DNA from: Oscillatoriales cyanobacterium
GTDB lineage: Bacteria > Cyanobacteriota > Cyanobacteriia > Cyanobacteriales > Microcoleaceae
NCBI GenBank assembly: GCA_004292955.1
Contig: RDXX01000015.1
Span: forward strand, 1-64,000
DNA length: 64,000 nt
Direction: 5' to 3'
The notes beneath the pieces were generated by a model. It was not told the DNA's origin and ran no database searches. It saw only the letters and a program-made list of their open reading frames with translations. Made by a program: the position numbers and the translations under genes. Shown here piece after piece: positions 3,886-51,660 of the stretch (its first letter is position 1; each line of letters begins with the position of its first letter).

Positions 3886-4062
3886 CTTGAAAGCCTCTGG
3901 GTTTGGCGTAGAAATTAAAATCAGACGATTCATTACTCCAATCCTCGGACTTCCAGGTAGAGGTTGCCCTCAAGCGGTCAACTGTCAACTAAGAGGGCTC
4001 TCACGGGGGCACTGCCCCTACAACAGATCAACTGTCAACTGTCAACTGTCAACTGTCAACTG
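3886..4062 (+). repeat. Dispersed ~130-bp repeat with TTGACAG heptamer tail
   Basis: Core motifs GAAATTAAAATCAGACGATT and CATTACTCCAATCCTCGGAC, followed by AGGTAGAGGT and several heptamers reading CAACTGT. The tail enters the 3' end of nanE and supplies its last codons. The remainder of the 3682-4041 gap holds the upstream region of the PBP2 gene; I see no gene in it. Other copies of this element: 19721, 26688, 33932, 40041, 50303, 58804, 60563. Confidence 0.8.
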
Positions 4063-4728
4063 AATGAACGACGCATAGGCTGTCACCTTAATATCAATTC
4101 CAGTAATATCTCCACCGACAACAACAGCCGTTGCTCCTAAATTCAATGCTTTTTGAGCCATGGAGGGCCCAGAGATTCCGCCTTCGCAGATAACGGGAAT
4201 CTTGAGCTTTGCTACCATTTGCGCTAGCAAATCAAATCCGGGCGGCGAGAAACTTTCTGTTTGGGGTGTGTAGCCAAAAAGAGTAGTACCGACAGTATCT
4301 GCACCAGCTTCAGCAGCGGCGATCGCAGATTCTATAGTATCTACATCCGCCATGACTAATTTCCCTAATTCTTTGTGAATGCGATCGATTAACGTCTTTA
4401 AGTCTTCGCCAGCAGGGCGGTTTCGCAAAGTCGCGTCAATGGCGATAATATCTGCTCCTGCAAGTGCGATCGCCCGTGCGTCTTCAAACCGAGGAGTAAT
4501 GTAAATCTCGCATCCCGCCAATTGCTGCTTCCAAATGCCAATTACGGGAGCCGATACCTGTTGTCGCACCGCTGCAACGTGAGCCGGGGTGTCAATCCGC
4601 ACGCCCGATGCACCTCGATTGATGGCGGTGCGAGCCATTGCTGCAATCACGATCGGATCGTGCAGCGGCGAATCAGCAGGTGCTTGACAAGAAACAATTA
4701 ATCCTGTGGGAATTTGACAGTTAATCAT
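4042..4728 (-). CDS. nanE: Putative N-acetylmannosamine-6-phosphate 2-epimerase
   Basis: 228 residues from the ATG at 4728 (MINCQIPTGLIVSCQAP). Family enzymes interconvert ManNAc-6-P and GlcNAc-6-P in amino-sugar metabolism and fold as a TIM barrel. Visible NanE features: the N-terminal GLIVSCQAP strand, GASGVRI, PVIGIWKQ, ADIIAIDAT, LVMADVDT with alternating AEAGAD, CEGGI and AVVVGGDIT (phosphate-binding strand). The frame stays open upstream to 4806, but that extension is translated GGGCATG array and is unlikely to be genuine. The array abuts the chosen ATG, so there is no recognisable Shine-Dalgarno sequence. The last five residues (LTVDS) and the TGA come from the TTGACAG array. No other nan genes are nearby. 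Confidence 0.85.
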   Translation of the reverse strand: MINCQIPTGLIVSCQAPADSPLHDPIVIAAMARTAINRGASGVRIDTPAHVAAVRQQVSAPVIGIWKQQLAGCEIYITPRFEDARAIALAGADIIAIDATLRNRPAGEDLKTLIDRIHKELGKLVMADVDTIESAIAAAEAGADTVGTTLFGYTPQTESFSPPGFDLLAQMVAKLKIPVICEGGISGPSMAQKALNLGATAVVVGGDITGIDIKVTAYASFIQLTVDS

Positions 4729-4835
4729 GGGGAATTGGGGAATGGGGAATGGGGCATGGGGCATGGGGCATGGGGCATTGGGCATCGGGCATTGGGCAGG
4801 GGGCATCGGGCATTGGGCAAACAGGGCATTGGGCT
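4729..4835. repeat. GGGCATG/GGGCATT heptamer array
   Basis: Degenerate 7-bp tandem array (GGGCATG, GGGCATT, GGGCATC) directly upstream of nanE and downstream of the four-helix-bundle gene. Not CRISPR: there are no spacers. Confidence 0.85.
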
Positions 4836-4846
4836 TTTTTTGTGAT

Positions 4847-5212
4847 TTATTCCCTGTGTCCTATTGAACTCAAATAAGCGTTAAGTTTTGGTAGTAATTT
4901 ATCGACAATTGGTTTGAATTTGCTTACTTCTTCGCTGGTGATAAGGTGTCTAGCATAGGCTAATCTTAACCAGTTTACGGTTTCGTACAAAGAGCCTCTG
5001 GCAATTTTTACAAAACGCCGATTATCTTGATCATTATAACGACCTCTTCCTTCAGCAATATTAGCACAGACACTATCAGCAGACCGAACTATCTGTTTGC
5101 CCATCGTATCTTTTGTGAAGTAATCCCATTTTTTAACAATCTCCCAAATCTGATTCGCCAAACTTTCCGCCAACTTATAAACCTCTAATTCCTCAAAATC
5201 AGGTCTTCCCAT
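4847..5212 (-). CDS. Four helix bundle protein (23S rRNA IVP family)
   Basis: 121 residues, all-helical. Family signature F.ELEVYK.A..L at residues 6-18, QIVRSADSV.ANIAEG at about 41-56, and RF..IARGS..E at about 65-77. This family (originally found as ORFs in 23S rRNA intervening sequences) forms pentameric four-helix bundles; relatives include the Avd accessory protein of diversity-generating retroelements. No reverse transcriptase or variable repeat is visible here. The stand-alone function is unknown. The gene is enclosed by GGGCATG arrays on both sides (4729-4835, 5240-5284), which makes it look like a small inserted cassette. Confidence 0.85.
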   Translation of the reverse strand: MGRPDFEELEVYKLAESLANQIWEIVKKWDYFTKDTMGKQIVRSADSVCANIAEGRGRYNDQDNRRFVKIARGSLYETVNWLRLAYARHLITSEEVSKFKPIVDKLLPKLNAYLSSIGHRE

Positions 5213-5239
5213 AATTACCTCAAAAACTCAATTATATTA

Positions 5240-5284
5240 AATGCCCCATGCCCCATACCCCATGCCCCATGCCCCATGCCCCAT
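5240..5284. repeat. CCCCATG heptamer array
   Basis: About six 7-bp units (CCCCATG, one CCCCATA) between the four-helix-bundle gene and the histidine kinase stop codon. Confidence 0.85.
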
Positions 5285-7935
5285 TATCCATTAATCCCGG
5301 CCATTAAAGAAAGAATTTTGTCAAGCAATTGCTCGGGGTGAATCGGTTTAGCCAAACAATCGTTAGCTCCCGCCGTCACAAAAGATATTTCATCTGCGGG
5401 AATTTCTTTAGCGCTTAAAGCCAGAATTTTGAGATTTTCAGTAGCGGGTTTTTGGCGAAGTTGTTGAATTATTTCGCAGCCGTTCATCCCGGGTAAACGC
5501 ATATCCACAATCACAGCATTGGGCTGCAAAAGTTCAATTTGTTCTACCGCCGCCGAGCCTTCAATCATCCACACTACCTGCATTCCTGCGGCTGTCAGGA
5601 TATCGCAAATCAGCATGGCAGTTTCTTCATCTTCTTCTACGAGGACGAGGCTGCCCCGCAAGGAGGAAGAGTGCAGCGGTAAAGATGAATTCGATTTTTC
5701 ATATTTGAATTTTGTGGATTCATCTTTGCTTTTAGTTTGCATTGGTATAAAAACTGTAAAAGTAGAGCCAACATCAACTGTAGAGTTGACTTCGATCGCG
5801 CCGCCGTGAAGTTCTACTAATTGTTTAGTTAATGCCAATCCCAGACCTGTGCCGCCGTATTCGCGGCGGTATGGGGAATCTAACTGCTGGAATTTTTGAA
5901 ACAAGAGCGATCGCTGATCTTCGGGAATTCCAATGCCGGTATCTTTGATTTGAAAAACAGCGGTGCTACCTGGGGGTGCAGTACCGGGCTGTCGCACTGC
6001 TGGCGTCCGAGTTTTATCTTCTGTCACCCACACTCGCAGGACGATTCGCCCGCCTTCGGGAGTAAATTTAATCGCATTTCCTAAAAGATTGAACAGAATT
6101 TGTCTCAAGCGGCGCGGGTCTGCGGTGAAGCGATCGCACTCTTGTTTGATCCGCTGTTCTTGCACGAGTTCCACGCCTTTAGCTATAGCTTTTTCTTTGA
6201 AGGCGTGCAGGCTCTGAGAAGCTAATTTAGAAATTGAAAATTCACTAATTTTTAATACTGCTTTTCCTGCTTCTACTTGCGATAAATCTAAAATATCGTT
6301 AATTAATTCTAATAAGTGGTCGCCGCTGTCCCGGATAGTTTGCAGGTACTGTCGCTGTTTGGCAATTGGTACTTCTTTGGTGCCAACTTTGCCGTAAGAC
6401 CACCGCAGCAGCGTGTCCGAAATGCCGATGACGCAGGTGAGGGGAGTCCGCAATTCGTGGCTCATAGCTGCCAAAAATTCGCTTTTGGCGAGGCTGGCAG
6501 ACTGGGCGGTAGCAAGGGCATCGCGCAGTTCTTGCGTTCGCTCTATGACGCGCTGTTCAGAGGTGCACTTTTGCTGCTGGACTTCTGCATAAAGTTCGGC
6601 TTGGTAAATGGCGATCGCCAAATGTTCTGCTATTTGCCGCAAAAATGTTTTTTTGCTTTCTTCCCACTCGCACACAGTACACTGGTGGGCGATTAGCAGC
6701 CCCCACAATTCGTCTTGAACTACGATCGGTACTAGCAACTTCGCCCGCACCTTCGCCCGCCGCATCAACTCTAAAAAACAAGAGTGCGAAGAGTAAGTTA
6801 TTTCCACATCAGTGACGCACAAAGCCAAACCTTTGCGATATTTCTCTCTGTCAATGACTCCATCGGGAAAACACTGGGCGCCTTCACTAAAATTCAGTAC
6901 AGACGAGATAGCATCGCTGGCTAAAGCTTCGTAGGTAACGCGACCTAAATACAAGTAAGAACCGGGATTTTCTTTGACTTCGCCAGAAACCGCCATAGGT
7001 ATTTCTTTACCTAATTCGGCATGGTGGGGGGCTGGCACTTTTTCAAATTGATAAATTAACAGGCGATCGACATCCAAAAACTCTCGCACTCTCGAAACTG
7101 CTTTTGACAAAATTACTGGTAATTCCAAACTCTGGCGGATTTGAGTTGTCACCTGATTCAAAAGTCGCTCTTGTTCTAGCTGCTGCTGCAAAGCATCTTC
7201 CACAGACTGACAAAATGAAATGCAGGGACTGGCAATTTGTAAGTGATTGACGGCTTCGGCAATCTGGTGGTGTAGCGTTTCTGGAGCGATCGGTTTTAAC
7301 GCTGAGTTTCCCTCTATTTCTGTTGGGAGCTTTAGGGGCAGGGGACTGTTTTTGCTGGCATCGGTAGCGAGAAGATCCAGCAAATTTAGGGTGAATTCGC
7401 TTTGTAAAATTGCCGAGTTCGGCTGTATGTTCTTAATTGCTTGTTTGAGGGCGCGAATGTCAATTTGTCTTGGCGGTGCGGGCGTTATTTCTGCGAGTTT
7501 GTCTGCGAGGGGAGAGAGGAATTTGGCGATCGCCCCTGGATCGAAAGTCAAATCCACATTTAATTGCGAAGTGAGATGTTTTTCACTGTGTTTGCGTCCG
7601 TTTGTTGCCAACTCATCTAATGCCTCGCCCCGCAGCAGCGCGCTAAACCGAGCTGATACCACTGCTGCAAACCTTTGGGACGAGTTTCCTTCCCCATTTT
7701 CAGGATTGGCGATCGCATCGTCGGCGAGCCAAATCGCCCCCGGGAGTTCAGCCATTTGCTGTAACAACTGGTAAGCAGCCTCAAAGGTTGCGATCGGCAA
7801 AGTTCGATTTAAGGTTTTTGGTTTCAATCTAGGTATTTTCCCGGTTGTTTTAAAGGACAAAATATGAATGCCGCTGTTTTGGGGAGGGAACCAGGGGCGC
7901 AGCAGACGGGGCCGCTCCAAAAGACTTGAGATCAA
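5284..7935 (-). CDS. Hybrid sensor histidine kinase, GAF-HisKA-HATPase-REC
   Basis: 883 residues, starting at TTG 7935 because an in-frame stop lies a few codons upstream and the next ATG is far inside. Residues 1-230 form an unrecognised N-terminal region; GAF domain about 260-450 (LLNQVTTQIRQSL...DRLLIYQF); HisKA with phospho-acceptor H493 (MSHELRTPL); HATPase about 595-725 (NLLGNAIKF, DTGIGI, GGTGLGLAL); receiver about 760-875 with D811 (VDMRLPG). No transmembrane segment, so it is probably a cytoplasmic sensor. The GAF lacks a PCDIP or phytochrome-type cysteine motif that I can recognise, so chromophore binding is not supported. It is divergent from the 8254 and 9986 genes, which it may serve as a kinase (inference from context only). 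Confidence 0.9.
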   Translation of the reverse strand: MISSLLERPRLLRPWFPPQNSGIHILSFKTTGKIPRLKPKTLNRTLPIATFEAAYQLLQQMAELPGAIWLADDAIANPENGEGNSSQRFAAVVSARFSALLRGEALDELATNGRKHSEKHLTSQLNVDLTFDPGAIAKFLSPLADKLAEITPAPPRQIDIRALKQAIKNIQPNSAILQSEFTLNLLDLLATDASKNSPLPLKLPTEIEGNSALKPIAPETLHHQIAEAVNHLQIASPCISFCQSVEDALQQQLEQERLLNQVTTQIRQSLELPVILSKAVSRVREFLDVDRLLIYQFEKVPAPHHAELGKEIPMAVSGEVKENPGSYLYLGRVTYEALASDAISSVLNFSEGAQCFPDGVIDREKYRKGLALCVTDVEITYSSHSCFLELMRRAKVRAKLLVPIVVQDELWGLLIAHQCTVCEWEESKKTFLRQIAEHLAIAIYQAELYAEVQQQKCTSEQRVIERTQELRDALATAQSASLAKSEFLAAMSHELRTPLTCVIGISDTLLRWSYGKVGTKEVPIAKQRQYLQTIRDSGDHLLELINDILDLSQVEAGKAVLKISEFSISKLASQSLHAFKEKAIAKGVELVQEQRIKQECDRFTADPRRLRQILFNLLGNAIKFTPEGGRIVLRVWVTEDKTRTPAVRQPGTAPPGSTAVFQIKDTGIGIPEDQRSLLFQKFQQLDSPYRREYGGTGLGLALTKQLVELHGGAIEVNSTVDVGSTFTVFIPMQTKSKDESTKFKYEKSNSSLPLHSSSLRGSLVLVEEDEETAMLICDILTAAGMQVVWMIEGSAAVEQIELLQPNAVIVDMRLPGMNGCEIIQQLRQKPATENLKILALSAKEIPADEISFVTAGANDCLAKPIHPEQLLDKILSLMAGING

Positions 7936-8253
7936 AGAAGTCAGTCGATTTTAGATCTTAGATTTTAGATTTTAGATTTACTTGCAGCTTCGTGAATCAC
8001 CGGAGCAGGAACTTCGAGCTAAGATTTTGGGCTGCTCGCAACTTAAGTCGCGCGCTTGTATCCGTTTTTCTGCGGTGTCGTGACTCAAATAACGTAGCCA
8101 GTTAAGGCTGAGGCTGGTCAACACAGCTTGCGAGATATTACTCTTACAAGCTCAGTTCTTTTAAGACTGGGTTGCTGACTACTTTAAACAATCTTAATCC
8201 AGTATAATATCAATATATAATTTGTTAACTTCTACTTAACACTATCCGGGTAA
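7936..8253. other. Divergent intergenic region with GATTTTA heptamers
   Basis: Contains GATTTTA heptamers at about 7949-7979 and a segment ending GCGCTTGTATCCGTTT (about 8052-8068), which recurs at about 56720-56740 after another GATTTTA array. A TATAAT hexamer at 8203-8208 is a plausible -10 for the 8254 gene, but I see no good -35. No gene. Confidence 0.5.
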
Positions 8254-9985: not shown

Positions 9986-11917
9986 ATGAAAATTTTGCTA
10001 GTAGAAGATGACACAATTACAATCAATTTGCTGACCAGAGCGCTGAATGCTCATAATTACAATGTGAATACGGCGGAAGACGGCGAAACAGCCTTGCAGT
10101 TGGCACAAGCCTACGATTACGACTTGATTGTTTTGGATGTGCTGATTCCTAAACTCGACGGTATTAGTTTGTGTCGGGAATTGCGATCGTCCGGCTGCCA
10201 AATGCCGATTTTATTGCTGACAGCGCTAGATAGCAGTAACGATAGAGTTCAAGGTTTAGAAGCGGGTGCAGACGATTATGTGGTGAAACCCTTTAATCTC
10301 CAAGAATTAATTGCTCGAATTCGGGCTTTGCTGCGCCGGGGTAAGGCAAGTTTGTCGAGTACAAGTTTGACTTGGGAAAAACTGCAAGTCAACCCGGATA
10401 CTACGGAAGTAACTTATGGCGAAAAAGTTCTGCATTTGACTCCCAAAGAGTACAATCTGCTGGAACTTTTCCTGAGAAATCCCCGGCGCATTTTCAGCCG
10501 CAGTGCCATGCTCGATCGCATTTGGTCGGCTGGCGAATTTCCTCAGGAAGAAGCCGTTACCGCTCATATCAAGGGGCTGCGGCACAAGCTGAAAGCAGCC
10601 GGGATGACTGTAGATTTAGTGGAAACGGTGTATGGATTGGGCTACCGGCTCAAAAGTCTGCCGGAGGAGATTGAGAGTCCAAAAGTTGCCCGGGATACGG
10701 CAGAAACTGCTAAAAGTCAAGAAAATGTACCTGCTGAATCGATCGCACACAGCCAGGAATTAAGCAACGATGAGCGCCGTCTCCAAGTCCTGAGTGTGGT
10801 TGCGGAAATTCGGGGCAAGTTAAGAGCTAATTTTATCGAAAAAGTGGCGATATTCGATCGCGCGATCGCCCAACTGAAAACCGGAACCTTGGACAACCAA
10901 CTGCGGCGGGAAGCCCAGGAGCAAGCTCACAAATTAGTCGGTTCTTTGGGAACTTTAGGGCTGCCTAAAGGTTCGGAAGTTGCGCGCAAGATCGAACAGT
11001 TGTTCAAGGCCCAAAACATCTTTAAACCGGAGACTGCTCAGCAGATTGAGGATTTTCAGGATTTGCTCAAACAGATATTCGATCGCCCGCCGGAACCTGA
11101 AAGCGAGCTGGTTACTGCGGTTTCCAAAAAGCGCCGCATTCTGATCGTTGATGATGATACTTTGCAGAGCGATCGACTAAAAGCAGCAGCATCCGGTTCG
11201 GGCTTTGAGATAGAAGTTGCCACATCTGGGCAATCCGCAAGAAGCGCGATTTCTCAACAGCCTCCCGACGCGATTTTACTGGATTTGACATTTTCCAGAA
11301 TTCAGGAAAACGGACTTACTCTCCTAGCCGAGCTCCGCACTGAAAAACCTGATATTCCAGTGATGATTTTTAGCGGGAACAATCAATTGAGCGATCGAAT
11401 TGAAGTTGCTCGTTTGGGAGCTTCGGGCTTTTTACATAAATCTATCTCCCCAGCAGATATACTCAAAGCAGTCGCCCAGGTTCTCGACCAAACAGGCGCT
11501 TCTGAAGCCAAAGTTATGGTAGTAGACGATGATGTGCATCTATTGGCTGCGCTGAAAATGATTCTACAACCTTGGGGATTGCAAGTCACAACATTAGAGC
11601 GGCCCGAAAAGTTCTGGGAGGTACTCGAAACCACTTGTCCAGATTTACTAATTTTAGATGTGGAGATGCCTGGTTATAGTGGTATCGAGCTGTGTTTGGC
11701 GGTGCGGAACGATTTGCGCTGGAGCAAGCTTCCCGTGCTATTTTTGACTGCTCATTCTGAGTCGGAAATAGTGCGTCAAATGTTTGTCGCGGGTGCTGAT
11801 GACTACGTGAATAAGCCGATCGTGGAACCGGAATTAATTGCTCGCATCCTGAATCGTTTGGAGCGGACTCAACTCCGACACAAACTTGCTCTGACACAGT
11901 TGACAGTTGACAGTTGA
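9986..11917 (+). CDS. Multi-domain regulator REC-wHTH-HPt-REC-REC
   Basis: 643 residues. REC1 (1-120, phospho-acceptor D51), OmpR-type winged helix (about 128-225, LTPKEYNLLELFL and ETVYGLGYR), histidine phosphotransfer domain (about 260-350, H315 in AHKLVGSLG), REC2 (about 385-505, D433) and REC3 (about 512-632, D558). The protein combines a DNA-binding response regulator with the intermediate and extra receiver modules of a phosphorelay, so signals from hybrid kinases could be passed inside one molecule. The last six residues (QLTVDS) and the stop come from the TTGACAG array that follows. Neighbours on both sides are sensor proteins, including the phytochrome at 12479, which makes a shared pathway plausible but unproven. 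Confidence 0.9.
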   Translation: MKILLVEDDTITINLLTRALNAHNYNVNTAEDGETALQLAQAYDYDLIVLDVLIPKLDGISLCRELRSSGCQMPILLLTALDSSNDRVQGLEAGADDYVVKPFNLQELIARIRALLRRGKASLSSTSLTWEKLQVNPDTTEVTYGEKVLHLTPKEYNLLELFLRNPRRIFSRSAMLDRIWSAGEFPQEEAVTAHIKGLRHKLKAAGMTVDLVETVYGLGYRLKSLPEEIESPKVARDTAETAKSQENVPAESIAHSQELSNDERRLQVLSVVAEIRGKLRANFIEKVAIFDRAIAQLKTGTLDNQLRREAQEQAHKLVGSLGTLGLPKGSEVARKIEQLFKAQNIFKPETAQQIEDFQDLLKQIFDRPPEPESELVTAVSKKRRILIVDDDTLQSDRLKAAASGSGFEIEVATSGQSARSAISQQPPDAILLDLTFSRIQENGLTLLAELRTEKPDIPVMIFSGNNQLSDRIEVARLGASGFLHKSISPADILKAVAQVLDQTGASEAKVMVVDDDVHLLAALKMILQPWGLQVTTLERPEKFWEVLETTCPDLLILDVEMPGYSGIELCLAVRNDLRWSKLPVLFLTAHSESEIVRQMFVAGADDYVNKPIVEPELIARILNRLERTQLRHKLALTQLTVDS

Positions 11918-12259
11918 CAGTTGACAGTTGACAGTTGACAGTTGTCACGAAGGAAGAAGGAAGAAGGAAGAGTTGACAGTTGACAGTTGACAGTTGACAG
12001 TTGACAATCAAAAATCTTCAATCCCCAATCCCCAATCCAAAATCCAAAATCCAAAATCGTTTGACAGTTGACAGTTGACAGTTGACAGTTGACAGTTGAC
12101 ACGAAGGAAGAAGGAAGAAGGAAGAAGGAAGAAGGAAGAGTTGACAGTTGACAGTTGACAGTTGACAGTTGACAATCAAAAATCTTCAATCCCCAATCGA
12201 AAATCCAAAATCCAAAATCCAAAATCGTTTGACAGTTGACAGTTGACAGTTGACAGTTG
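11897..12259. repeat. Compound heptamer region, duplicated ~165-bp unit
   Basis: Two successive copies (about 11899-12060 and 12061-12229) of the same series: TTGACAG array, GAAGGAA array, second TTGACAG array, ATCAAAAATCTTCAATCCCC, then AAAATCC array ending AAAATCG. Copy numbers of each heptamer differ between the two. A third TTGACAG run closes the region. All arrays have 7-bp units. From 12260 to 12478 nothing further is recognised except the leader of the phytochrome gene. Confidence 0.9.
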
Positions 12260-12478
12260 ACCGCAAGAGGGGGATCTGGCCTCAACGGTAAACGATAGAT
12301 ACAAAAGTTGTTAGGCGATTGTTGACACCTAATGATGCAGCGGGCGTCCGAAACGCCGGTAAGCTTTCGCCAAAACTTGGGATTATTAAATTCTAGGATT
12401 CGGACGCGATGGCGTCGAGGGATGGAGAGCCCGGTCATTTAACAATACAGGCTGATTTAGATCAATGTTCACAATCAA

Positions 12479-15400
12479 ATGAAAGCAATGGTATTAACGT
12501 CAGAGAAAGGCGATCGCGATGACACCGACTGCGAATTAATTTACGCTCCGGCTTCGATTCAACCTCACGGCATCCTGTTGGTGGTGGAATCTACTGTGTT
12601 GAAGATTTTGCAAGTTAGCAATAATACTTTTAAGGCGATCGGCATTTACCCGCAAGAACTTTTGGGCAAGTTTTTACATGGATTTGTCGAGACTGAGGAA
12701 ATTAAGGCGATTCAAAAAGCTTTATGTGAAAACAGCAATCAAACTAACGATATCAGCTTATCATTCAAAATTCAAAACCGCAAGTCTTTTTTTCATGGGA
12801 CGCTGTATCAATTAAGTTCGGTATTAATTTTTGAACTAGAGCAGGTTGTTTCCCCAAAAGCGAGCAATTATTTCAATTCTTATCATTTAGTCCAAAAGCC
12901 GATCGACAAAATCCACAACACGCCAAACCTGCAATTGCTGTGTCAGACAGTGGTAGAAGAGGTGCGGAGGATGATTGGGTTCGATCGGGCGATCGTCTAT
13001 CAATTTGATGCCACAGGTGCGGGAAAAGTCGTCGCCGAAGATAAAGCAGAAAATTTGGCTTCTTTATTGGGAATGCACTATCCGGCTGCCGATATTCCCC
13101 CGCAGGCTAGAAAGCAGTTCACCATGAATTTAATTCGATTTATTCCCGATATTCACTATCAGGCTGTAGAACTAATTCCTGAGTGCAATCCGCTGACCGG
13201 TCGCCCCCTGGATATGGGCTTATCTTTGTTGAGAACAGTTTCGCCTTGCCACGTTCAATATCTCAAGAATATGAACATTGGCGCTAGCATGACCGTGACA
13301 TTAATCAAAGATCGAAAACTCTGGGGATTGATCGCCTGTCACCACCGAACACCAAAGTATATCAACTACGAAACCAGAACGGCTTGCGAACTGGTAGCAA
13401 AGTTTGTAAATCTAGAACTCAGCTACAAACAAGATAGCGAAGACCGGGACTATGCAATTAATTTAAAAGAAATTTGCCATAAATTCATCGCTGAAATTTC
13501 TCAATCACACTGCTTTGTAGAAGGTTTACTTAAATCCCGAGATGAATTGCTGGCATTAGTGGGCGCTATCGGTGGAGTTGTCTGTGCTAATGAAAATCTA
13601 ACAGCCATTGGCACAACCCCAGAATTGGGAGAAATCAGAAACTTAATAGCTTGGATAAAACCTCAAATAAATAATGATGTTTTTTATACAGATTCTCTCT
13701 CAAAACTGTATCCGCCATCGGAGAAATTCAAGAAAATTGCTAGCGGTTTGCTGGTGCTTGCCATATCCGAGATGCAAAATTATTACATTTTGTGGTTCCG
13801 TCCCGAAGCAATTCAAACTGTCAACTGGGCAGGTAAACCCGACTGGCCAATTGAATTTAAACCGGATGGCACCCCATTGATGTCTCCTCGCACTTCCTTT
13901 GAGTTGTGGCAAGAAACTGTGAGGTCAAAATCTTTGCCTTGGCTGCCTTGCGAAATCGAAATTGCCCGAGAACTGCGAGTTGCTATTGCTAGCATTGAGT
14001 TGCGGAAAATTAACCAGCAGCTCAACTTAGCTTTGTCGGCTACCAAAATTGGATTTTGGGACTGGGACATACAGAAAAATCGCATGGTTTGGTCGAGGGA
14101 ACATGAAGAGTTGTTTGGATTGGCGCCTGGAACTTTTGGCGGAACAGATCAAAGTTTTGCAGCTTGCGTTCACCCGGAAGATTTAAAAGCTTTGGAGAAT
14201 GCTAGGAATCAGGCCCTCGCCGAGCGATCGGATTTCTGTCACGAACACCGCGTGGTTTGGCCCGATGGCAGCATTCACTGGATGGAAGGGAAAGGTAAGT
14301 TTTTTTACACCGAAACGGGCGAAGCTGTGCGGATGGTGGGCACAGTTACAGAAATTAGCGATCGCAAAGCTAAAGAATTACAGTTGCATTTGTTGGAATC
14401 AGTCATCACCACGACTAACGACGCGGTGTTAATTACCGAAGCTGAACCGATTGACGAACCGGGCCCGCGAATTCTGTATGTCAACCCAGCTTTCACGCGG
14501 ATGAGCGGCTATACGCTAGAAGAAGTTGTGGGCAAAACGCCGCGCATCTTGCAAGGAGAAAAAACAAATAGGGCAAGTCTCGATCGCATTCGGAGAGCTT
14601 TGGAAACCTGGCAGCCGGTGCGGGTTGACTTGATCAATTACCGCAAAGACGGGACGGAATTTTGGGTAGAATTGAGCATTGTGCCGATCGCAGATGAAAC
14701 TGGTTGGTTTACCCATTGGGTGGCAGTGCAGCGCGACATTAGCGATCGCAAACAAGCTGAAGCCGCCCTCCAACAGCTCAACGAACTCTTAGAAATGCGA
14801 GTTTTGCAGCGCACCAGAGAACTAGAAATTTCTCAAACAGAACTGCGGGAAAGCGAAGCTTTATTTCGTTCTCTGAGCGAGAGTTCTCCTGTCGGCATCT
14901 TCAAAATAGATGCTGAGGGGAAATGTACCTATACAAATCCGCGCTGTCAAGCAATTGGTGGCTTCACAGCCGCAGAAGCTTTAGGAGACGGCTGGATGCG
15001 ATTTGTTCACCCCGAAGATATCAAACTAATTCAGTCTAAGTGGTCGGAATTGCGATCGCCTGGTGAAGAACTTTCCTGCGAATTCCGCCACATCCAGCCA
15101 GATGGAACAATCCGGTTTGGTCGGGCAAAAGCAGCTCCGATTTTTGCCGATGGAGGTCAACTAATTGGTTACGTCGGCACAGTCACAGATATCACAGAAA
15201 GTCGAGCAATTGAAAAAATGAAAAATGAGTTTATTTCCATTGTGAGCCACGAACTGCGAACGCCGCTGACCTCAATTCGCGGTTCTTTAGGTTTGCTGGC
15301 GGCTGGGGTGCTCAAAGATCGACCGGAAACTGCCAAACAGATGTTAGAAATTGCGTCAAGCGATACCGAACGGTTAGTGCGTTTGGTCAACGATATTCTC

Positions 15401-15940
15401 GATTTAGAGCGACTCGATTCGAGCCAAGTTACCATTGTTAAGCAGTGGTGCGATGTGCAGGTTTTGATGCGGAAGTCTGCGGAAGCTGTGATGTCTGTGG
15501 CTGCTGAAAATAAGATTAATTTGTCGATTTTGCCCGCAACGGCACAAATTTGGGCTGACCCGGACAGGATTGTGCAACTGCTGGTAAATTTGTTGAGCAA
15601 TGCGATTAAATTTTCGGCTCCGGGGTGTACAGTAACTGTCAGGGTTGAAGATTTGGTCGATTCCCTACGGGATAGCTACGCTTCACGGGTTTTATTTGAA
15701 GTCAAAGATCGAGGGAGGGGGATTCCTGCTGATAAACTAGAAACTATTTTTGGACGGTTTCAACAGGTCGATGGTTCTGACTCCCGCCAAAAAGGAGGTA
15801 CGGGTTTGGGTTTGGCTATCTGTCGCAGCATCGTGCAGCAGCACGGAGGCAGAATTTGGGCCGAAAGTGTTGTCTCTGAAGGCACGAGTTTCTATTTCAC
15901 AGTGCCTGCACCGCCCGAAGGCGAAGGGGAGAAGTTTTGA
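12479..15940 (+). CDS. Phytochrome-type sensor histidine kinase with three extra PAS domains
   Basis: 1153 residues. PAS (20-130, SIQPHG), GAF (~145-320), PHY (~330-510), PAS domains at ~525-645, 645-785 and 790-910, HisKA with H924 (VSHELRTPL), HATPase ~1030-1145 (GGTGLGLAI). Photosensory residues seen: D205 of PAADIPP, C257-H258 in SPCHVQYLKNM, and the P470-R-T-S-F474 tongue motif. D205, C257 and H258 sit exactly two residues before Cph1 D207, C259 and H260, so a bilin (phycocyanobilin) thioether on C257 and red/far-red photochemistry are expected. The BphP-type N-terminal Cys position holds Thr; a Cys (C18) lies two residues later. The second extra PAS has a LOV-like sequence but Pro replaces the flavin-binding Cys (GKTPRILQG), so it should not be photoactive. 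No bilin biosynthesis gene is adjacent. Confidence 0.92.
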   Translation: MKAMVLTSEKGDRDDTDCELIYAPASIQPHGILLVVESTVLKILQVSNNTFKAIGIYPQELLGKFLHGFVETEEIKAIQKALCENSNQTNDISLSFKIQNRKSFFHGTLYQLSSVLIFELEQVVSPKASNYFNSYHLVQKPIDKIHNTPNLQLLCQTVVEEVRRMIGFDRAIVYQFDATGAGKVVAEDKAENLASLLGMHYPAADIPPQARKQFTMNLIRFIPDIHYQAVELIPECNPLTGRPLDMGLSLLRTVSPCHVQYLKNMNIGASMTVTLIKDRKLWGLIACHHRTPKYINYETRTACELVAKFVNLELSYKQDSEDRDYAINLKEICHKFIAEISQSHCFVEGLLKSRDELLALVGAIGGVVCANENLTAIGTTPELGEIRNLIAWIKPQINNDVFYTDSLSKLYPPSEKFKKIASGLLVLAISEMQNYYILWFRPEAIQTVNWAGKPDWPIEFKPDGTPLMSPRTSFELWQETVRSKSLPWLPCEIEIARELRVAIASIELRKINQQLNLALSATKIGFWDWDIQKNRMVWSREHEELFGLAPGTFGGTDQSFAACVHPEDLKALENARNQALAERSDFCHEHRVVWPDGSIHWMEGKGKFFYTETGEAVRMVGTVTEISDRKAKELQLHLLESVITTTNDAVLITEAEPIDEPGPRILYVNPAFTRMSGYTLEEVVGKTPRILQGEKTNRASLDRIRRALETWQPVRVDLINYRKDGTEFWVELSIVPIADETGWFTHWVAVQRDISDRKQAEAALQQLNELLEMRVLQRTRELEISQTELRESEALFRSLSESSPVGIFKIDAEGKCTYTNPRCQAIGGFTAAEALGDGWMRFVHPEDIKLIQSKWSELRSPGEELSCEFRHIQPDGTIRFGRAKAAPIFADGGQLIGYVGTVTDITESRAIEKMKNEFISIVSHELRTPLTSIRGSLGLLAAGVLKDRPETAKQMLEIASSDTERLVRLVNDILDLERLDSSQVTIVKQWCDVQVLMRKSAEAVMSVAAENKINLSILPATAQIWADPDRIVQLLVNLLSNAIKFSAPGCTVTVRVEDLVDSLRDSYASRVLFEVKDRGRGIPADKLETIFGRFQQVDGSDSRQKGGTGLGLAICRSIVQQHGGRIWAESVVSEGTSFYFTVPAPPEGEGEKF

Positions 15941-19698: not shown

Positions 19699-19720
19699 TT
19701 TGATAATTGGGAATTGTTCA

Positions 19721-19875
19721 GTTGACAGTTGACAGTTGACAGTTGACAGTTGACAGTTGATAGTTGACCGATTGAGGACACTTGACAAAGGAAGTCCGAG
19801 GATTGGACTAATGAATAGTCTGATTTTAATTTCTCCCGATCGGGCGGGCGGGCTTTCAACCAATTGTTTCTGGTA
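19721..19875 (-). repeat. Dispersed ~130-bp repeat with TTGACAG tail
   Basis: Inverted relative to the copy at 3886: TTGACAG heptamers at 19721-19765, then GTCCGAGGATTGGACTAATG, AATAGTCTGATTTTAATTTC and a TTTCTGGTAA end. It lies in the leader of spp. Confidence 0.85.
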
Positions 19876-20387
19876 ATTCCTTAATTACAAGACTTAATTA
19901 CAAGAATAAAATTATCTTAGTTTTTGTTATCTTTTGTTGGTTTGTGGTGCGACAGGGGGCGTCAAGCTGCCACAATGGATTAGGTTCAGGATAACTCAAG
20001 TCCAGAAGTTGCGCTAGCGAGGGAGTCTGTCAGACGAAAGGCTGATGGGGGTTGAGGTGGAAGTGTCGCAGCTATGGGGGAGAAGGGCTGGCGGATTGAT
20101 TGAATTGTCGATCGAGCTTTATGACAAGATACAGCACGCGGGCGATCGCAGCAACAGCCCCAAAAGTAAGGGGGCAATTCGTAAATTGCCCCCAAATGAG
20201 TTAGAAATTACAAACTTTCCTCAGTCTGAAAAAGCTACTGAAGTCGGTACAGTCCCGAAACTAGCAGCCAGACTGACACCTCTGATCTCCTTAGTATACA
20301 ACAAGACGCGACAGAAGTCATAGGATTTGAGATTTTAGATTTGGGAATGACTGATATGGTGTCCGCTGGATTAACCGGACTACGAAA
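19876..20387. other. Intergenic segment, no recognised gene
   Basis: Codon frames here (for example 20045-20323) show no family features. One perfect hairpin at 20170-20193 stands out. Otherwise I see nothing that I can name. Confidence 0.4.
20170..20193 (+). terminator. Perfect GC-rich hairpin
   Basis: GGGGGCAATT and AATTGCCCCC with a four-base loop. It has no T-run on either side, so an intrinsic terminator is only one possibility. Confidence 0.3.
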
Positions 20388-26611: not shown

Positions 26612-26813
26612 GCCAGAAACCGGGTTTTTCCGCCAAAATATTCGCAAAAAATCCTCAATCTCCCAAAAACCCGGTTTCTTTGAACCTACCAGAAAGAATT
26701 GCTTGAAAGCCCAAAGCCCGATCGGGAGAAATTAAAATCAGACTATTCATTACTCCAATCCTCGGACTTAAGGGTAGAGGTCGCTCTCAAACTGTCAACT
26801 GTCAACTGTCAAC
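26612..26813 (+). repeat. AAACCGGG palindrome followed by dispersed repeat
   Basis: 26612-26685: AAACCGGGTTTTTCCGCC ... AAAAACCCGGTTTCTT inverted pair. 26688-26813: the dispersed element, opening ACCAGAAAGAATTGCTTGAA and ending in CAACTGT heptamers. A short frame across this region encodes only repeat. Another AAACCCGGTTTCTT follows at about 26850. Confidence 0.85.
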
Positions 26814-26971
26814 TGGCCCAAGTATTCGATTCAAACCCTCAATCTCGCCAAAAACCCGGTTTCTTGATTGGCAGCTACCAGCCCCAAAAACAAGATTGAC
26901 ATCGGTTCTAATCCAGAATTTGCGTATATTAATTGATTAGTAAAGTATTGCATCACTTTTGTGTAAGTCCT

Positions 26972-30888: not shown

Positions 30889-31149
30889 CTATAATTTAAC
30901 GTAAAACATTACTAAATCTAATAATAACAGATTTTGTTCCTCTCTCTTCTTCCACTCTGCGCTCTCTGCGCTCTCTGTGGTTCAAAAAACTAATCTAAAC
31001 AAAAACCGACATCCCACAGGGAATTGCCGTGTATGCAGATATCGGGTAGAATGTCGATCGCCCAAAAAACTCCCAAACTTGTCCCGCAGCCCACTAAACT
31101 AGAAATAGCAGAACCAAATACAGCCATTATCTACTTCCTTTCACCAACC

Positions 31150-31533
31150 ATGAGTCAAACCTTGGAAAACCTCACCGCCATCGACGACAAGCTGTCCAAA
31201 CGCCACATCGACCTCGATCCGGGCGGCTACTTCATCATTTACATCGATCGCGAAACCAGCCTAATTTGCGCCAAACACTTCACCAACATTATCGACGATC
31301 GCGGCCTCGCCGTCGATCCCGAAACCGGCAAACCCATCCCCGCCCGCGGCAAAGTAGAACGCACTCAGTGCACGCTTTTTAGTGGCAGAACCGCCAAAGA
31401 ACTTTGCGTCAAAATCCTAGAAGAAACCCGCCCCAGCCCGGTGACAATGTTCGATCACGCGGCTTATCTGGGACGGGAATTTGTGCGGGCAGAACTTGCT
31501 TTGTTGAACGATCGAGAATACGTTCAAGATTAG
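31150..31533 (+). CDS. DUF4346 domain-containing protein
   Basis: 127 residues from the ATG at 31150 (MSQTLENLTAIDDKLSKRHI). An upstream in-frame extension to 31024 exists but does not fit the family. Conserved blocks: IDLDPGGYFIIYIDRE, ICAKHFTNIIDDRGLAVDPE, SGRTAKELCVKI, FDHAAYLGREFVRAELAL. DUF4346 is nearly universal in cyanobacteria; a related domain accompanies archaeal MtrA-like proteins. Its function is unknown. It converges with psb32; only a TTGACAG array separates the two stops. Confidence 0.82.
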   Translation: MSQTLENLTAIDDKLSKRHIDLDPGGYFIIYIDRETSLICAKHFTNIIDDRGLAVDPETGKPIPARGKVERTQCTLFSGRTAKELCVKILEETRPSPVTMFDHAAYLGREFVRAELALLNDREYVQD

Positions 31534-31541
31534 TCCCAGCG

Positions 31542-31577
31542 TCAACTGTCAACTGTCAACTGTCAACTGTCAACTGT
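31542..31577. repeat. TTGACAG/CTGTCAA heptamer array
   Basis: About five 7-bp units between convergent genes; the degenerate last unit (CTGTTCA) overlaps the TGA of psb32. Confidence 0.9.
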
Positions 31578-33757: not shown

Positions 33758-34149
33758 AGAAACCGGGTTTTTGCCAAGATTCTTGGTGAAAGCCACAGAT
33801 TTGGTAAAAAACCCGGTTTCTGAGTCGCAGAGAGTGGGAGGGGCCGAGAAACCGGGTTTTTGCCAAAATTCTTGGTGAGAGCCGACAGATTTGGTAAAAA
33901 ACCCGGTTTCTGAGTCGCAGTGCGTAAATTCAGTTGACAGTTGACAGTTGACAGTTAAGAGCGACCTCTACCTGGAAGTCCGAGGATTGGAGTAATGAAT
34001 AGTCGGATTTTAATTTCTCCCGCTCAAGGTTCCGGCTTTAAACGAATTCTTTCTGGTAAGTTCAGTGGAGGGACAGAGAAACCGGGTTTTTGCCAAAATT
34101 CTTGGTGAAAGCCCCTGATGCCGCGAAAAAACCCGGTTTCTGAGTCGCA
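33758..34149. repeat. Three AAACCGGG palindromes and one dispersed repeat
   Basis: Three near-identical ~70-base units at 33758-33826, 33843-33918 and 34079-34149: AAACCGGGTTTTTGCCAA, CTTGGTGA, then AAAAACCCGGTTTCTGAGTC. Between the second and third lies the dispersed element 33932-34059 (inverse orientation, TTGACAG end at left). Upstream of ftsH. Confidence 0.88.
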
Positions 34150-39971: not shown

Positions 39972-40255
39972 AGACGGCGGTTGAAACCGCTGCTATACAA
40001 ACGATGTCCGCCTCCGCGGACTAAGAGAGGATAACTTCAACAGTTGACAGTTGACAGTTGACAGTTGACAGTTTGAGAGCGACCTCTACCTAGAAGGAAG
40101 AGGATTGGAGCAATGAATAGTCTGATTTTAATTTCTCCCTCAAAGGGAGAGGCTTTCAACCAATTCTTTCTGGTAATTTTAATTGCCTTTGTCTTCAACC
40201 CGCGGAGGCGGGTTTTGTTTTTATAGACGCGGTTTCAACCGCCCTGTCTTCTTTT
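39972..40255. repeat. Palindromic element with a dispersed repeat inserted inside it
   Basis: Outer element: AGACGGCGGTTGAAACCGC and CCGCCTCCGCGG at left, CCCGCGGAGGCGGG and GCGGTTTCAACCGCC at right, mutually inverted. In its centre (about 40041-40176) sits the dispersed repeat, TTGACAG end first. This nesting shows that the dispersed repeat can insert into an existing element. Confidence 0.7.
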
Positions 40256-47283: not shown

Positions 47284-47314
47284 GAAATATCTCTCTTCTT
47301 TCTTCCTTCAATCG

Positions 47315-48496: not shown

Positions 48497-48551
48497 AAGT
48501 ATAGAAATTTGCGATCGTTATACGGGTGTCGCGCACTAGCATATCGCGCGA

Positions 48552-48614
48552 AAGTAAAGCTTAGGTTAAAAATCTTTACATTTTATCTTAATCTAATGTT
48601 AACCAAGATTAAAT
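48552..48614 (-). promoter_or_regulatory. Pho box: six direct octamers at 11-bp spacing
   Basis: Read on the minus strand toward pstS: ATTTAATC, GTTAACAT, ATTAAGAT, ATGTAAAG, TTTAACCT, CTTTACTT, each 8 bases with 3-base spacers (+ strand positions 48552, 48563, 48574, 48585, 48596, 48607). The cyanobacterial Pho box recognised by SphR is of the form (C/T)TTAA(C/T)(C/T)(T/A) repeated with a 3-bp spacer. Five of six have two or fewer mismatches to a loose TTAA-centred pattern. The array lies 56-118 bp upstream of the pstS start codon. Confidence 0.7.
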
Positions 48615-48860
48615 TCATTCATGAGCTTGACAAGTGTGATTTTTTTAGATATGTGCCAAATAAATTAGTAGAGAAACAAGGATGCGATCGCGCGATCGCG
48701 AACAATTCCACATTAGGCGATCGGCACATCCAGACTTGAGAACCATAAAACCCTACAATGGTGGTTGTTTTGACAAGGTGCTAGTATTGAGAACTTAAAT
48801 GCTGCTAGCGTTGAAGCTGGCATCTGAGGAATACCTTCTGACGAACACCGTTTGACGATC

Positions 48861-49439
48861 ATGCCTGCTCCTATCGAATTAATCTGGGCTGTTATTGGTT
48901 TGCTCCTAACGATAGGAGGCACTTTTTTGCCTGCATCTGTGACAATGCCGATCGGGTTTTGGGACGATCGCGGACTTCAGGCGTACTCTTTAGGTGTTAC
49001 CTATCAAATTGGAGCAGTATTGCTAGTAGGCTGCATGGGTGGCAAAAATGCGGCGGCTCTCTCGCAAATTGCCTATTTGGTATTAGGATTGACTTTGTGG
49101 CCAGTTTTTGCTCAAGGTGGCGGCATCGGCTACATTAAAGAAGCGAGTTTTGGGTATTTGTTGGGTTTCGTGCCTGGTGCTTGGGTGTGCGGCTGGGTCG
49201 CTTTTAAGGTTGCTTCGCGGTTGGAATCGATCGCTTTTAGTTGTTTGTGCGGTTTATTTACAGTTCACGCGATCGGCTTAATTTATCTGATTTTTAATTA
49301 CTTGCTGATTCCGGGCAAAAAAACACCTTTATTGAATGAGATTCTAAAATATTCTGTTTATCCTCTACCGGGACAATTGGCTGTAGTTTGTGCGATCGCA
49401 CTTCTGTCATTTACTTTGCGCCGCTTGATGTTTTATTAA
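48861..49439 (+). CDS. bioY: Biotin transporter BioY
   Basis: 192 residues from the ATG at 48861 (a TTG three codons upstream is also in frame). Six hydrophobic segments and the BioY hallmark GYLLGFVPGAWVCGW (~100-114). It is the S-component of an ECF transporter for biotin and can work with a shared EcfAAT module. It precedes lspA on the same strand, an arrangement I have seen in other cyanobacteria. Divergent from pstS; the 48497-48860 gap otherwise contains only the Pho box and unremarkable sequence. Confidence 0.85.
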   Translation: MPAPIELIWAVIGLLLTIGGTFLPASVTMPIGFWDDRGLQAYSLGVTYQIGAVLLVGCMGGKNAAALSQIAYLVLGLTLWPVFAQGGGIGYIKEASFGYLLGFVPGAWVCGWVAFKVASRLESIAFSCLCGLFTVHAIGLIYLIFNYLLIPGKKTPLLNEILKYSVYPLPGQLAVVCAIALLSFTLRRLMFY

Positions 49440-49443
49440 TTGG

Positions 49444-49486
49444 GGAATTGGGGCATAGGGCATAGGGCATAGGGCATAGGGCATTG
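49444..49486. repeat. GGGCATA heptamer array
   Basis: About five units of GGGCATA/GGGCATT directly after the bioY stop codon. Confidence 0.88.
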
Positions 49487-49631
49487 GTAATTGTGCAAAA
49501 TTGGGTTATAGTATCATTCTGCAACGGGAAAGTCATCTCGCTGCGGGTGGGAAAGATCGGCTAAACTGCTGAAACGCGAGATTTGAGTGAATTATCCCAT
49601 GCCCGATGCCCTATCTTTTATTCCCTAATCC

Positions 49632-50141
49632 ATGCGTTTTAAAAGAAATCCCTTGTTCTGGGTAGCTGCTATTATCAGTTTAGTTTTAGACCACCTGAGC
49701 AAGTTTTGGGTGGTGCAAAATTTTGACTTGACGGTTCCTCCGCAGACTCAGCCGCTGTTACCGGGGATATTTCACTTCACTTATGTTGTTAATACCGGTG
49801 CGGCTTTTAGTTTGTTTAGCAATGGTGGGGCGAGTTGGTTGCGCTGGCTGTCTTTGGGTGTGAGTGTGGGATTGATGATTTTGGCTTGGTTCGGGCCGCG
49901 AATTAACCGCTGGGAACAAGCTGGCTACGGTTTGATTTTGGGGGGCGCACTGGGTAACGGGATCGATCGATTTATTTTGGGCCACGTTGTAGATTTTATC
50001 GATTTTCGGATCATTCGGTTCCCGGTATTTAATCTGGCCGATGTGTTTATTAATGCTGGGATTATCTGTTTGCTGATTGCAACTTTTCACGGTGCACCGC
50101 CGCCGAGAAACCGAGATGATAGCGATTCTATTTCAGAGTAA
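49632..50141 (+). CDS. lspA: Lipoprotein signal peptidase
   Basis: 169 residues. Four membrane helices and the LspA motifs: LDHLSKFWV (~20), VVNTGAAFSLF (52-62), GALGNGIDR with VVDFIDF (catalytic D121) and FNLADVFI (catalytic D137). It cleaves the signal peptide of prolipoproteins such as PstS. The C-terminal 15 residues (PPPRNRDDSDSISE) are a polar tail. Confidence 0.93.
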   Translation: MRFKRNPLFWVAAIISLVLDHLSKFWVVQNFDLTVPPQTQPLLPGIFHFTYVVNTGAAFSLFSNGGASWLRWLSLGVSVGLMILAWFGPRINRWEQAGYGLILGGALGNGIDRFILGHVVDFIDFRIIRFPVFNLADVFINAGIICLLIATFHGAPPPRNRDDSDSISE

Positions 50142-50302
50142 TAGGATTTTTATCAAGTCTTTGTACGACATAATTGTTGGCGGAGTCAAACGAATGTTGT
50201 TTGCACTCTGCTGGCGATAACACAGGTGCGTCGCTACTCGAAAAGTCGATTTTTTTGAGAGATTGTGAATGGCGACGCACCCTACGGGTTTCTCACTCAT
50301 TT

Positions 50303-50437
50303 ACCAGAAGAATTGGTTGAAAGCCTCTCCCTTTGAGGGAGAAATTAAAATCAGACTATTCATTATTCCAATCCTCGAACTTAAGGGTAGAGGTCGCTAT
50401 CAAACTGTCAACTGTCAACTGTCAACTGTCAACTGTT
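50303..50437 (+). repeat. Dispersed ~130-bp repeat with CTGTCAA tail
   Basis: ACCAGAAGAATTGGTTGAAA ... CTCCCTTTGAGGGAGAAATT ... then CTGTCAA heptamers. The tail enters the 3' end of the DUF1501 gene. Confidence 0.88.
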
Positions 50438-51660
50438 GAAACTAACCCAACGATTCGATTTGATTGATAACCGGGAAAAACTCGATCGACCTTTTCCCCA
50501 TCCAGCCGTAAATGACTCTGCAACAAAGTAGCAATTACATCTCGAAAATCCGTCGTCACGGCTAAATCGCGCTTTTGATACAACTGACTTTCATCCAATC
50601 CCGGCCACTCGCCATAAACTTTGCCGCCCTTAATATTACCACCCAAAAGCCACATCGCATTTCCGTGTCCGTGATCCGTGCCGCCGTTACCGTTTTCGCG
50701 CACAGTGCGGCCGAATTCTGAGATAACTACGATCGCACTTTCGGAGTAAACATCACCCAATCCCTGCACCAAATTCGCTAAACCCTGTCCCAGAGGGCGC
50801 AATCTTGCGGCTAATTGGCCTTGGGAACTTCCTTGATTGATGTGGGTATCCCAGCCTCCGAGGGCGAGGAAAGCTAGCTGAATGCTGGAGTCTCTCGCCA
50901 TCAGCCGCCCCAATTGCGTCGCGTCGCCGGGGAAACCATCGGCTAAGGGTGCGCCGTTATTGGCGGCTTTCATTTCTGCATCTAAGTTAGCCAGCAGGGT
51001 TTGGCGGGCGGCGCGACTTTCTCGGTATGCTTGACCTAGTTGGTCGCTATCGCTGTAAAGTCGATCGAATGCGGTACCGATTTGGGGTTTGTCAATGGCG
51101 ATCGGGCGGCTGGCATTTTTACCTAGTCTAAAGCTGGCAACTGCCATTTTTCCCGACAGGATGCGGGGTGTGGAGGTGCCACCATTCAAGGCTTGGACGG
51201 GGGAATTGGCGGATATGACTGACAGCAGGCGGTTCATCCAGCCGTCGGGGGTCTTGTTTTTGCCGGGAGTGCCACTTTCCATGTAGTCTTGCGCCTCGAA
51301 GTGCGATCGGGTGGGATCGGGAGAACCGCAAGCGTGGGCAAATGCGAGGGTTCCTTGCTGCCACAGCGGGGCGATCGCGATGAGTGCGGGGTGGAGTCCA
51401 AAACGGCCGTCAAGGTCGATCGCACCGCCTTGCAGCCCCGGTTTTGGGATAGCTATTTTGGGTCGAGATTGATAGTAATTCGCTTCTTGGTAGGGAACAA
51501 TTACGTTTAAGCCATCGACTGCGCCGCGCAAAAAGATGACAATTAATCGTTTGCTGTTCTTGGGTGCGGCGGCTTTCACGGCTAAACCGTGGAGTCCGAC
51601 AGACATAATTGTCGAAGTTGAAAGCAATCCGGTTTGGATTAAAAATTGGCGTCTGTTCAT
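50422..51660 (-). CDS. DUF1501 domain-containing Tat-exported protein
   Basis: 412 residues. Twin-arginine signal MNRRQFLIQTG...GLAVKA, then LIVIFLRGAVDGLNVIVPY, GLHPAL..I..LW, HACGSPDPTRSHFEAQDYMESG, ALGGWDTHINQG, VVISEFGRTVRENGNGGTDHGHG: an alkaline-phosphatase/sulfatase-like fold. Members are typically encoded next to a DUF1800 protein, as here. The function of the pair is unknown, though both are exported. Start ATG at 51660 immediately follows a TAATGGG array with no Shine-Dalgarno. The last residues (STVDS) and the TGA are encoded by the CTGTCAA array. Confidence 0.9.
   Translation of the reverse strand: MNRRQFLIQTGLLSTSTIMSVGLHGLAVKAAAPKNSKRLIVIFLRGAVDGLNVIVPYQEANYYQSRPKIAIPKPGLQGGAIDLDGRFGLHPALIAIAPLWQQGTLAFAHACGSPDPTRSHFEAQDYMESGTPGKNKTPDGWMNRLLSVISANSPVQALNGGTSTPRILSGKMAVASFRLGKNASRPIAIDKPQIGTAFDRLYSDSDQLGQAYRESRAARQTLLANLDAEMKAANNGAPLADGFPGDATQLGRLMARDSSIQLAFLALGGWDTHINQGSSQGQLAARLRPLGQGLANLVQGLGDVYSESAIVVISEFGRTVRENGNGGTDHGHGNAMWLLGGNIKGGKVYGEWPGLDESQLYQKRDLAVTTDFRDVIATLLQSHLRLDGEKVDRVFPGYQSNRIVGLVSTVDS

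What the first reader, a model, noticed from the sequence alone, without database searches (positions are those of the whole stretch)
4042..50440. Heptamer arrays supply the last codons and stop of three unrelated proteins
The proteins encoded at 4042 (nanE), 9986 (REC-wHTH-HPt-REC-REC) and 50422 (DUF1501) all end in TVDS followed by TGA, and in each case these codons are the TTGACAG (or CAACTGT) array itself. The unrelated sequence before that (SFIQL, LALTQ, RIVGL) shows that the tail was acquired separately. psb32 ends at the border of the same array. The arrays therefore extend into the 3' ends of coding regions and can remodel C-termini; 7-bp units also shift frame when the copy number changes.
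Basis: seen in the sequence. Interest (0 to 1): 0.75.

Follow-up and report, generated by a model that had tools for sequence, protein, structure and literature searches.

The report
Mobile element that replaces stop codons
In this cyanobacterium (probably Microcoleus) a tiny transposable element, one end of which is a run of 7-base repeats, inserts at some gene ends and gives the protein new last residues and a new stop codon, so that unrelated proteins can end in the same letters.

Summary
In detail: nanE, the REC-wHTH-HPt-REC-REC gene and the DUF1501 gene end in TVDS plus TGA read from a TTGACAG array. In 1.258 Mb of this genome 8 of 746 predicted genes end in TVDS; no other C-terminal tetrapeptide occurs more than twice. 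Filled/empty pairs show insertion next to GTAA, no duplication seen (12 of 22 pairs with GTAA at the junction; GTAA follows 116 of 146 copies). On the other strand this is TTAC, the IS608 target. I read it as a non-autonomous IS200/IS605-type MITE. Among 84 GTAA-retaining copies, 5 are entered by a frame with coding support, and all 5 sit exactly in an NNG|TAA stop codon; DUF1501 fits the same logic. nanE was hit before its stop; the REC gene lost its native stop beside an array. Copy-number change does not alter these tails. 71 of 118 sampled TTGACAG arrays show no trace of the element. Arrays over stops, and array polarity, were already published; this element I found in no paper searched.

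The parts
4042..4728 (-). nanE; native ...SVIGK* (as in G006) replaced by ...SFIQLTVDS*
3874..4068 (-). type-1 element in nanE: array end at 4068, left tip at 3874, with an extra ~50-bp piece inside the array that G011 lacks; the target now reads CTAA (3870-3873)
   Evidence: window 3871-4068 replaces 3 bases of G006
50422..51660 (-). DUF1501 gene; ancestral end ...GLV* (GTG TAA inferred from the flanks; G020 has GTT TAG) now ...GLVSTVDS*
50305..50440 (-). type-1 element at the DUF1501 stop; TTAC at 50301-50304 (+ strand)
   Evidence: coordinates read; G011 keeps an array without the core
9986..11917 (+). REC-wHTH-HPt-REC-REC gene; native ...LALTQR* lost in this genome
   Evidence: 0 of 24 relatives read end TVDS; Pfam
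11896..12261 (+). composite heptamer array (TTGACAG, GAAGGAA, AATCCAA units, two ~168-bp blocks) that took over the REC stop; no type-1 core seen beside it
31541..31577 (-). array directly after the TGA of the TPM-domain (psb32) gene, 7 bp from the stop of the convergent predicted gene 31051-31533
19719..19877 (+). type-1 copy (right limit approximate)
26683..26820 (-). type-1 copy (limits approximate)
33931..34063 (+). type-1 copy (right limit approximate)
40035..40176 (+). type-1 copy (limits approximate)
58804..58949 (+). subtype copy: TTGACAG array, variant core (TGAATAATTTTGTTTTATTT), related left tip, then GTAA
60559..60701 (-). type-1 core joined to a GATTTTA array instead of TTGACAG (left limit approximate)

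Best explanation
Type 1 is a ~140-bp non-autonomous element of the IS200/IS605 kind. Its left end is CAGAAAGAATTGGTTGAAAGCC, directly 3' of TTAC; its right end is a heptamer array (TGTCAAC)n ending TGAA. Seen from the other strand it lies directly 5' of GTAA with the array outermost. GTAA contains the ochre codon, so a gene ending NNG TAA offers a target at its stop. Insertion there gives NN-T TCA ACA GTT GAC AGT TGA, a tail STVDS and a new stop (SFS with the TTCATTCAG end). Because the array direction carries TGA in all frames, insertions near a gene's end in this orientation do little harm and persist. Shown: element limits, target, no duplication in readable pairs, position in stop codons, a tnpA/tnpB element in the same genome with a related left tip behind TTAC. 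Inferred: that such a TnpA moves it, and survivorship. A separate route, seen at REC, is loss of the native stop beside an array.
For: Constant ends, unrelated flanks in the 24 of 30 own-genome loci printed. 22 filled/empty pairs: 12 with GTAA at the junction (in two, bases on the far side have diverged; one empty site is a paralogous place), 3 one base off, 7 unreadable; no duplication in the 15 readable (by eye). GTAA after 116 of 146 copies. 84 copies with both ends (script required GTAA): 8 have a >=100-codon frame running in, 5 of these with coding support; all 5 give NNG|TAA on joining flanks (chance of that phase 5 times 0.004). Four of the 5 have Pfam families: Uma2, O-methyltransferase, two histidine kinases. 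At C1:72430 CCT TGA against empty CCG TAA. Left tip >=92% conserved at 19 of 22 positions, AAAG in 82 of 84. IS608: TTAC, C preferred next, guide AAAG (PMC5934647, passages). Related tips behind TTAC beside tnpA/tnpB on own contig C35 and before a TnpB ORF elsewhere; control: 7 coreless tip matches in 1.258 Mb, both strands, at least 4 of them clearly related left ends.
Against: In the own sample 7 array-held gene ends have a type-1 core nearby or further downstream; only 4 are NNG|TAA (C1:151923, C1:72430, C2:147833, DUF1501), 3 are not (nanE, C2:175574, the 64357 gene). 83 of 118 TTGACAG arrays lack a core within 90 bp and 71 of 118 lack even the left tip within 300 bp, including most that hold a stop. 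Right end TGAA, not the TCAA of IS608. The in-genome tnpA/tnpB element has no heptamer array. Left hairpin weak: mean z -1.0. REC is not an insertion. No transposition observed.
Confidence: 0.82

Rival explanations
1. The arrays are plain microsatellites grown by polymerase slippage next to stop codons; no mobile element is needed.
For: 71 of 118 TTGACAG arrays show neither core nor left tip. The BioY gene carries three different heptamers at one place in three species, and a GAAGGAA array sits on a native AAGAAG after the gene at 52038-53600. The REC stop loss fits local slippage or deletion.
Against: For type-1 copies: constant ends, fixed tetranucleotide, clean empty sites, and the insert in nanE.
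Confidence: 0.4
2. Insertion is steered to stop codons by a process tied to translation or transcription, beyond the GTAA target itself.
For: Roughly 4 of 80 G-TAA stops are occupied against 33 of 3386 intergenic GTAA, P 0.0097 (the 33 were not each checked for GTAA). Heptamer clusters of any unit crowd at stops: 46 within 10 bp of a 3' end, about 4 expected, plus 30 containing a stop, of 264.
Against: Only 4 occupied stops; better survival there would look the same. Arrays also crowd, mirrored, just upstream of starts.
Confidence: 0.15
3. The TVDS tail itself is selected as a C-terminal signal.
For: 8 of 746 genes share it.
Against: It follows from the repeat in every frame; the same element also gives SFS* or no new residue; Pfam shows several unrelated proteins.
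Confidence: 0.03

Closest known systems
IS200/IS605 family and its MITEs (IS608: passages of PMC5934647)
   Same: Insertion 3' of TTAC, target kept, C next, AAAG near the left end, left tip related to that of tnpA/tnpB elements
   Different: Right end is a heptamer array ending TGAA; no gene; weak left hairpin; can replace stop codons
TAACTGA heptamer arrays of Beggiatoaceae and cyanobacteria (MacGregor 2015, PMC4679880: abstract, passages, section 15)
   Same: Forward arrays with stops in all frames overlap stop codons of upstream genes (13 of 25 proteins that contain or overlap arrays); mobility raised as an 'if'
   Different: Other unit; no element, target or empty site in what I read
G-rich heptamers GGGAATC and GGGGA(C/T)T of Xanthomonas and Nostoc (Rehm 2015, PMC4692102: abstract, passages, sections 13 and 16)
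   Same: Same polarity: near stops on the coding strand, near starts on the non-coding strand, some overlapping the stop
   Different: No mechanism; authors generally found no link to insertion sequences or transposable elements; other units
Recalled, not tested: STRR heptamers and small dispersed repeats of cyanobacteria; MIRU of mycobacteria at stop/start overlaps
   Same: Tandem heptamers or small mobile repeats in intergenic DNA; a repeat landing on stop codons
   Different: Known to me from memory only

Membership tests
IS200/IS605-type MITE | Insertion next to a fixed short target without duplication | tested here: met
   12 of 22 pairs with GTAA at the junction, 3 one base off, 7 unreadable; GTAA after 116 of 146 copies
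IS200/IS605-type MITE | No terminal inverted repeats | tested here: met
   By inspection: CAGAAAGAATTGG... against ...TGAA
IS200/IS605-type MITE | Left end related to that of a tnpA/tnpB element with the same target | tested here: met
   L352 TTACCAAAGAAATGGGTTTAAAGCCCC, L349 TTACCAGAAAAATGGGTTGAAAGCCCC; related by eye and pattern, not identical; rate control
IS200/IS605-type MITE | Subterminal hairpins at both ends | tested here: inconclusive
   Mean z -1.0 left, -0.6 right over 84 copies
IS200/IS605-type MITE | Right cleavage site as in IS608 (TCAA) | tested here: not met
   All 84 end TGAA, partly by the script's pattern; TCAA is the IS608 site, not one the whole family needs (recalled)
IS200/IS605-type MITE | Moved in trans by TnpA on single-stranded DNA | not testable with these tools
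   No experiment; 13 Y1_Tnp matches in the genome
Described RNA family (Rfam 15) | Match at gathering score | tested here: not met
   0 matches in the window

The most novel reading that the evidence does not exclude
The abundant heptamer arrays of cyanobacterial (and perhaps Xanthomonas) intergenic DNA are in general the outer right ends, whole or left over, of MITEs that transpose as single-stranded DNA, each family with its own unit: type 1 TTGACAG, type 2 GATTTTA, and type-1 relatives in other genera with other units. This would explain the published polarity rule, why arrays abut coding regions, and why stop codons are repeatedly replaced. Lowered from 0.35 after one search showed no trace of the element at 71 of 118 arrays.
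Probability: 0.3. Interest if true: 0.78.

Novelty: new variant of a known kind. Interest (0 to 1): 0.6.

Why it matters
It gives a mechanism, with a target and empty sites, for part of the heptamer arrays of cyanobacteria and a testable account of their published polarity. It also shows a transposable element whose target contains a stop codon and which brings its own stop in every frame, so it can sit at gene ends at little cost. Annotators should treat ...TVDS and ...SFS tails in this group as likely element-derived.

Tried and rejected
Rejected: conserved RNA in the core (alifold -5 kcal/mol, z near 0; Rfam none). Not shown: polar growth of arrays; arrays far from genes extend alike on both sides (0.48 and 0.50, n=173). 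Rejected: frame shifting by copy number. Not found: a partner sharing both ends. No type-1 core and no left tip within 8 substitutions in 13 Y1_Tnp loci; a looser search gave the related tip of L302/L352. Among the 30 TnpB loci fetched (94 matches) L334 holds a type-1 copy that looks like a separate insertion, and two others weak matches. The 'backwards' control is useless because the array is mirror-symmetric. That the 64357 gene lost its stop by one substitution is undecided: relatives read TAG or CGG there, and the core lies downstream in both. Type-2 empty sites allow a GTCA duplication or a TGAC target. On recheck, one search showed that 2 of the 7 frames I had first counted at G-TAA stops (L206, L258) have no coding support; they are dropped, 5 of 5 remain, and confidence went from 0.85 to 0.82. 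Null model and gene calls are home-made; runs in one cluster are not independent.
Full report
Observation. The three ORFs end as described and the TVDS TGA is array DNA. The window holds 44 overlapping (TTGACAG)x2 matches against none in 100 shuffles. In 1.258 Mb of this 7.29-Mb genome, window included, my own gene caller finds 746 genes; 8 end in TVDS, and no other terminal tetrapeptide occurs more than twice. TTGACAG in this direction has TGA in every frame; the reverse direction has none. Any frame entering the array ends within 21 nt, so a shared TVDS needs no selection.

Orthologues. nanE: of 23 relatives read, only G011, 97% identical and with the array, shares the tail (of 28 relatives, 4 were missed by my motif and 1 is frameshifted). 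REC gene: 24 of 24 relatives read (26 loci) end one residue after ...Q; 7 have TTGACAG units just after the stop, and in one of these (G026) the stop is itself a TGA of the array. DUF1501: 4 of 5 end RIIGLI* or RIVGLV*; G011 shares the tail.

The element. Seven places in the window repeat a core beside an array, six with TTGACAG and one with GATTTTA; an eighth, variant copy lies at 58804-58949. The 24 own-genome loci printed (of 30) read TTCAACAGTTGAC(AGTTGAC)n ... core ... GGCTTTCAACCAATTCTTTCTG or close variants, with unrelated flanks. The whole-genome search scored 40 copies from 223 candidates; 37 cores lie in the 1.258 Mb. Median length 138 bp over 84 copies.

Insertion. Against G006, nanE has 198 bases in place of 3. 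Among 170 elements in all DNA held, 22 distinct filled/empty pairs were printed: 12 have GTAA at the junction, 3 are one base off (nanE GTGA, GTAG, GCAA), 7 cannot be read cleanly. None of the 15 readable pairs shows a duplicated target. GTAA follows 116 of 146 distinct copies. On the complementary strand the element sits 3' of TTAC and begins with C. IS608 inserts 3' of TTAC, prefers C next and has the left guide AAAG (PMC5934647, passages); type 1 has AAAG there in 82 of 84 copies. An own-genome element on contig C35 with tnpA and tnpB, and a TnpB element of another family, have related tips behind TTAC. The same loose tip pattern occurs 32 times in 1.258 Mb, both strands: 25 with a type-1 core, 7 without, at least 4 of which are clearly related left ends.

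Stop codons. I took 84 copies with both ends readable; the script required GTAA, so copies with a mutated target are left out. Eight are entered by a frame of at least 100 codons. One search gave 5 of these coding support; 3 (L206, L258, C145) lack it. For all 5, joining the flanks gives NNG TAA in frame: a Uma2 protein and an unassigned protein of this genome, a PAS histidine kinase (L121, this genome), a phytochrome-type kinase of G020 (named by its orthologue in the window), and an O-methyltransferase (L239). At C1:72430, not among the 84, CCG TAA became CCT TGA with no new residue. DUF1501 has the same geometry: GT|G TAA from the flanks, and G020 ends GTT TAG at that codon. Against this, nanE, C2:175574 and the 64357 gene carry the element or its core but were not hit at NNG|TAA. 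Occupied G-TAA stops are about 4 of 80 against 33 of 3386 intergenic GTAA (P 0.0097); small numbers.

The REC gene. The window lacks CGG TAA, which G011 and G006 keep directly before arrays; loss of 7 bases (CGGTAAG, against the G011 allele) would give the window sequence. This is array encroachment, not insertion.

Wider pattern. Of 264 clusters of perfect heptamer runs of any unit, 30 contain a stop and 46 lie within 10 bp of a gene's 3' end, about 4 expected. Within 60 bp of stops, overlaps included, the G-rich strand is the coding strand in 101 of 120 runs (5 reverse, 14 neutral); within 60 bp of starts it is the non-coding strand in 44 of 48 (3 reverse, 1 neutral); at 61-100 bp the bias is gone. 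163 of 332 runs have their G-strand 5' edge within 60 bp of a coding region or overlapping it, 12 of 332 their 3' edge. In G003 (54 runs) the figures are 8 of 11 at stops and 15 of 15 at starts. Rehm et al. 2015 had published this polarity for other heptamers, without a mechanism (PMC4692102), and MacGregor 2015 TAACTGA arrays over stops (PMC4679880). If arrays are the outer ends of elements with a 3' module of 100 bp or so, the polarity follows. This is shown for type 1 only. The left tip lies within 300 bp behind 47 of 118 TTGACAG arrays (17 of 2000 random positions); 71 of 118 have no trace. Type 2 (GATTTTA, 18-20 copies, two sites compared with empty ones) looks alike but its mechanism is open. 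Of ten loci fetched from other genera, L346 and L351 carry other heptamers, L345 the same one and L350 a heptamer-like repeat; the rest share the left tip only.

Spread. In the order, 20 of 243 genomes match, strongly only in genus-mates and one genome of another family; only 3 candidates per genome were scored.

Novelty. Eight searches of open-access papers listed no paper that, from titles, abstract openings and the passages I read, describes this element or insertion into G-TAA stops. I file it as a new variant of a known kind.

Noticed in passing
window 49440-49520; loci L133, L134: Just after the BioY gene stop three related species carry three different heptamer arrays (AGGGCAT, GAAGGAA, TTGTCAT/TTAGTCA) between conserved flanks.
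   Followed up: partly
G000 C1, C2, C112, C145, C30; G003; G006: A second dispersed element with a GATTTTA array at one end and a ~110-bp core ending ...CTTGTATCCGTTTTTGGGC; flanks suggest GTCA at its border.
   Followed up: partly
L137 (G010:C14), near the orthologue of window 12479-15940; C30:121909-122122: Foldback arrangements: a G-rich array, a long palindrome, then the inverted array.
   Followed up: no
own genome: 94 TnpB zinc-ribbon (PF07282) matches against 13 Y1 transposase (PF01797) matches.
   Followed up: no
window 4726-4819: The longest nanE ORF begins inside a CATGGGG heptamer array; the likely start is near 4728-4737, so the longest ORF is probably too long.
   Followed up: no
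L039 against L034: A different insert (ATATAGCCTTTCTCA... with inverted-looking ends) carries an internal GATTTTA array.
   Followed up: no
orthologues of window 12479-15940 in G020, G023, G010: The phytochrome-type histidine kinase ends natively in the window; G020 and G023 have a TTCATTCAG element end in the last codons (SFS*), and G010 reads EGLTVDS.
   Followed up: partly
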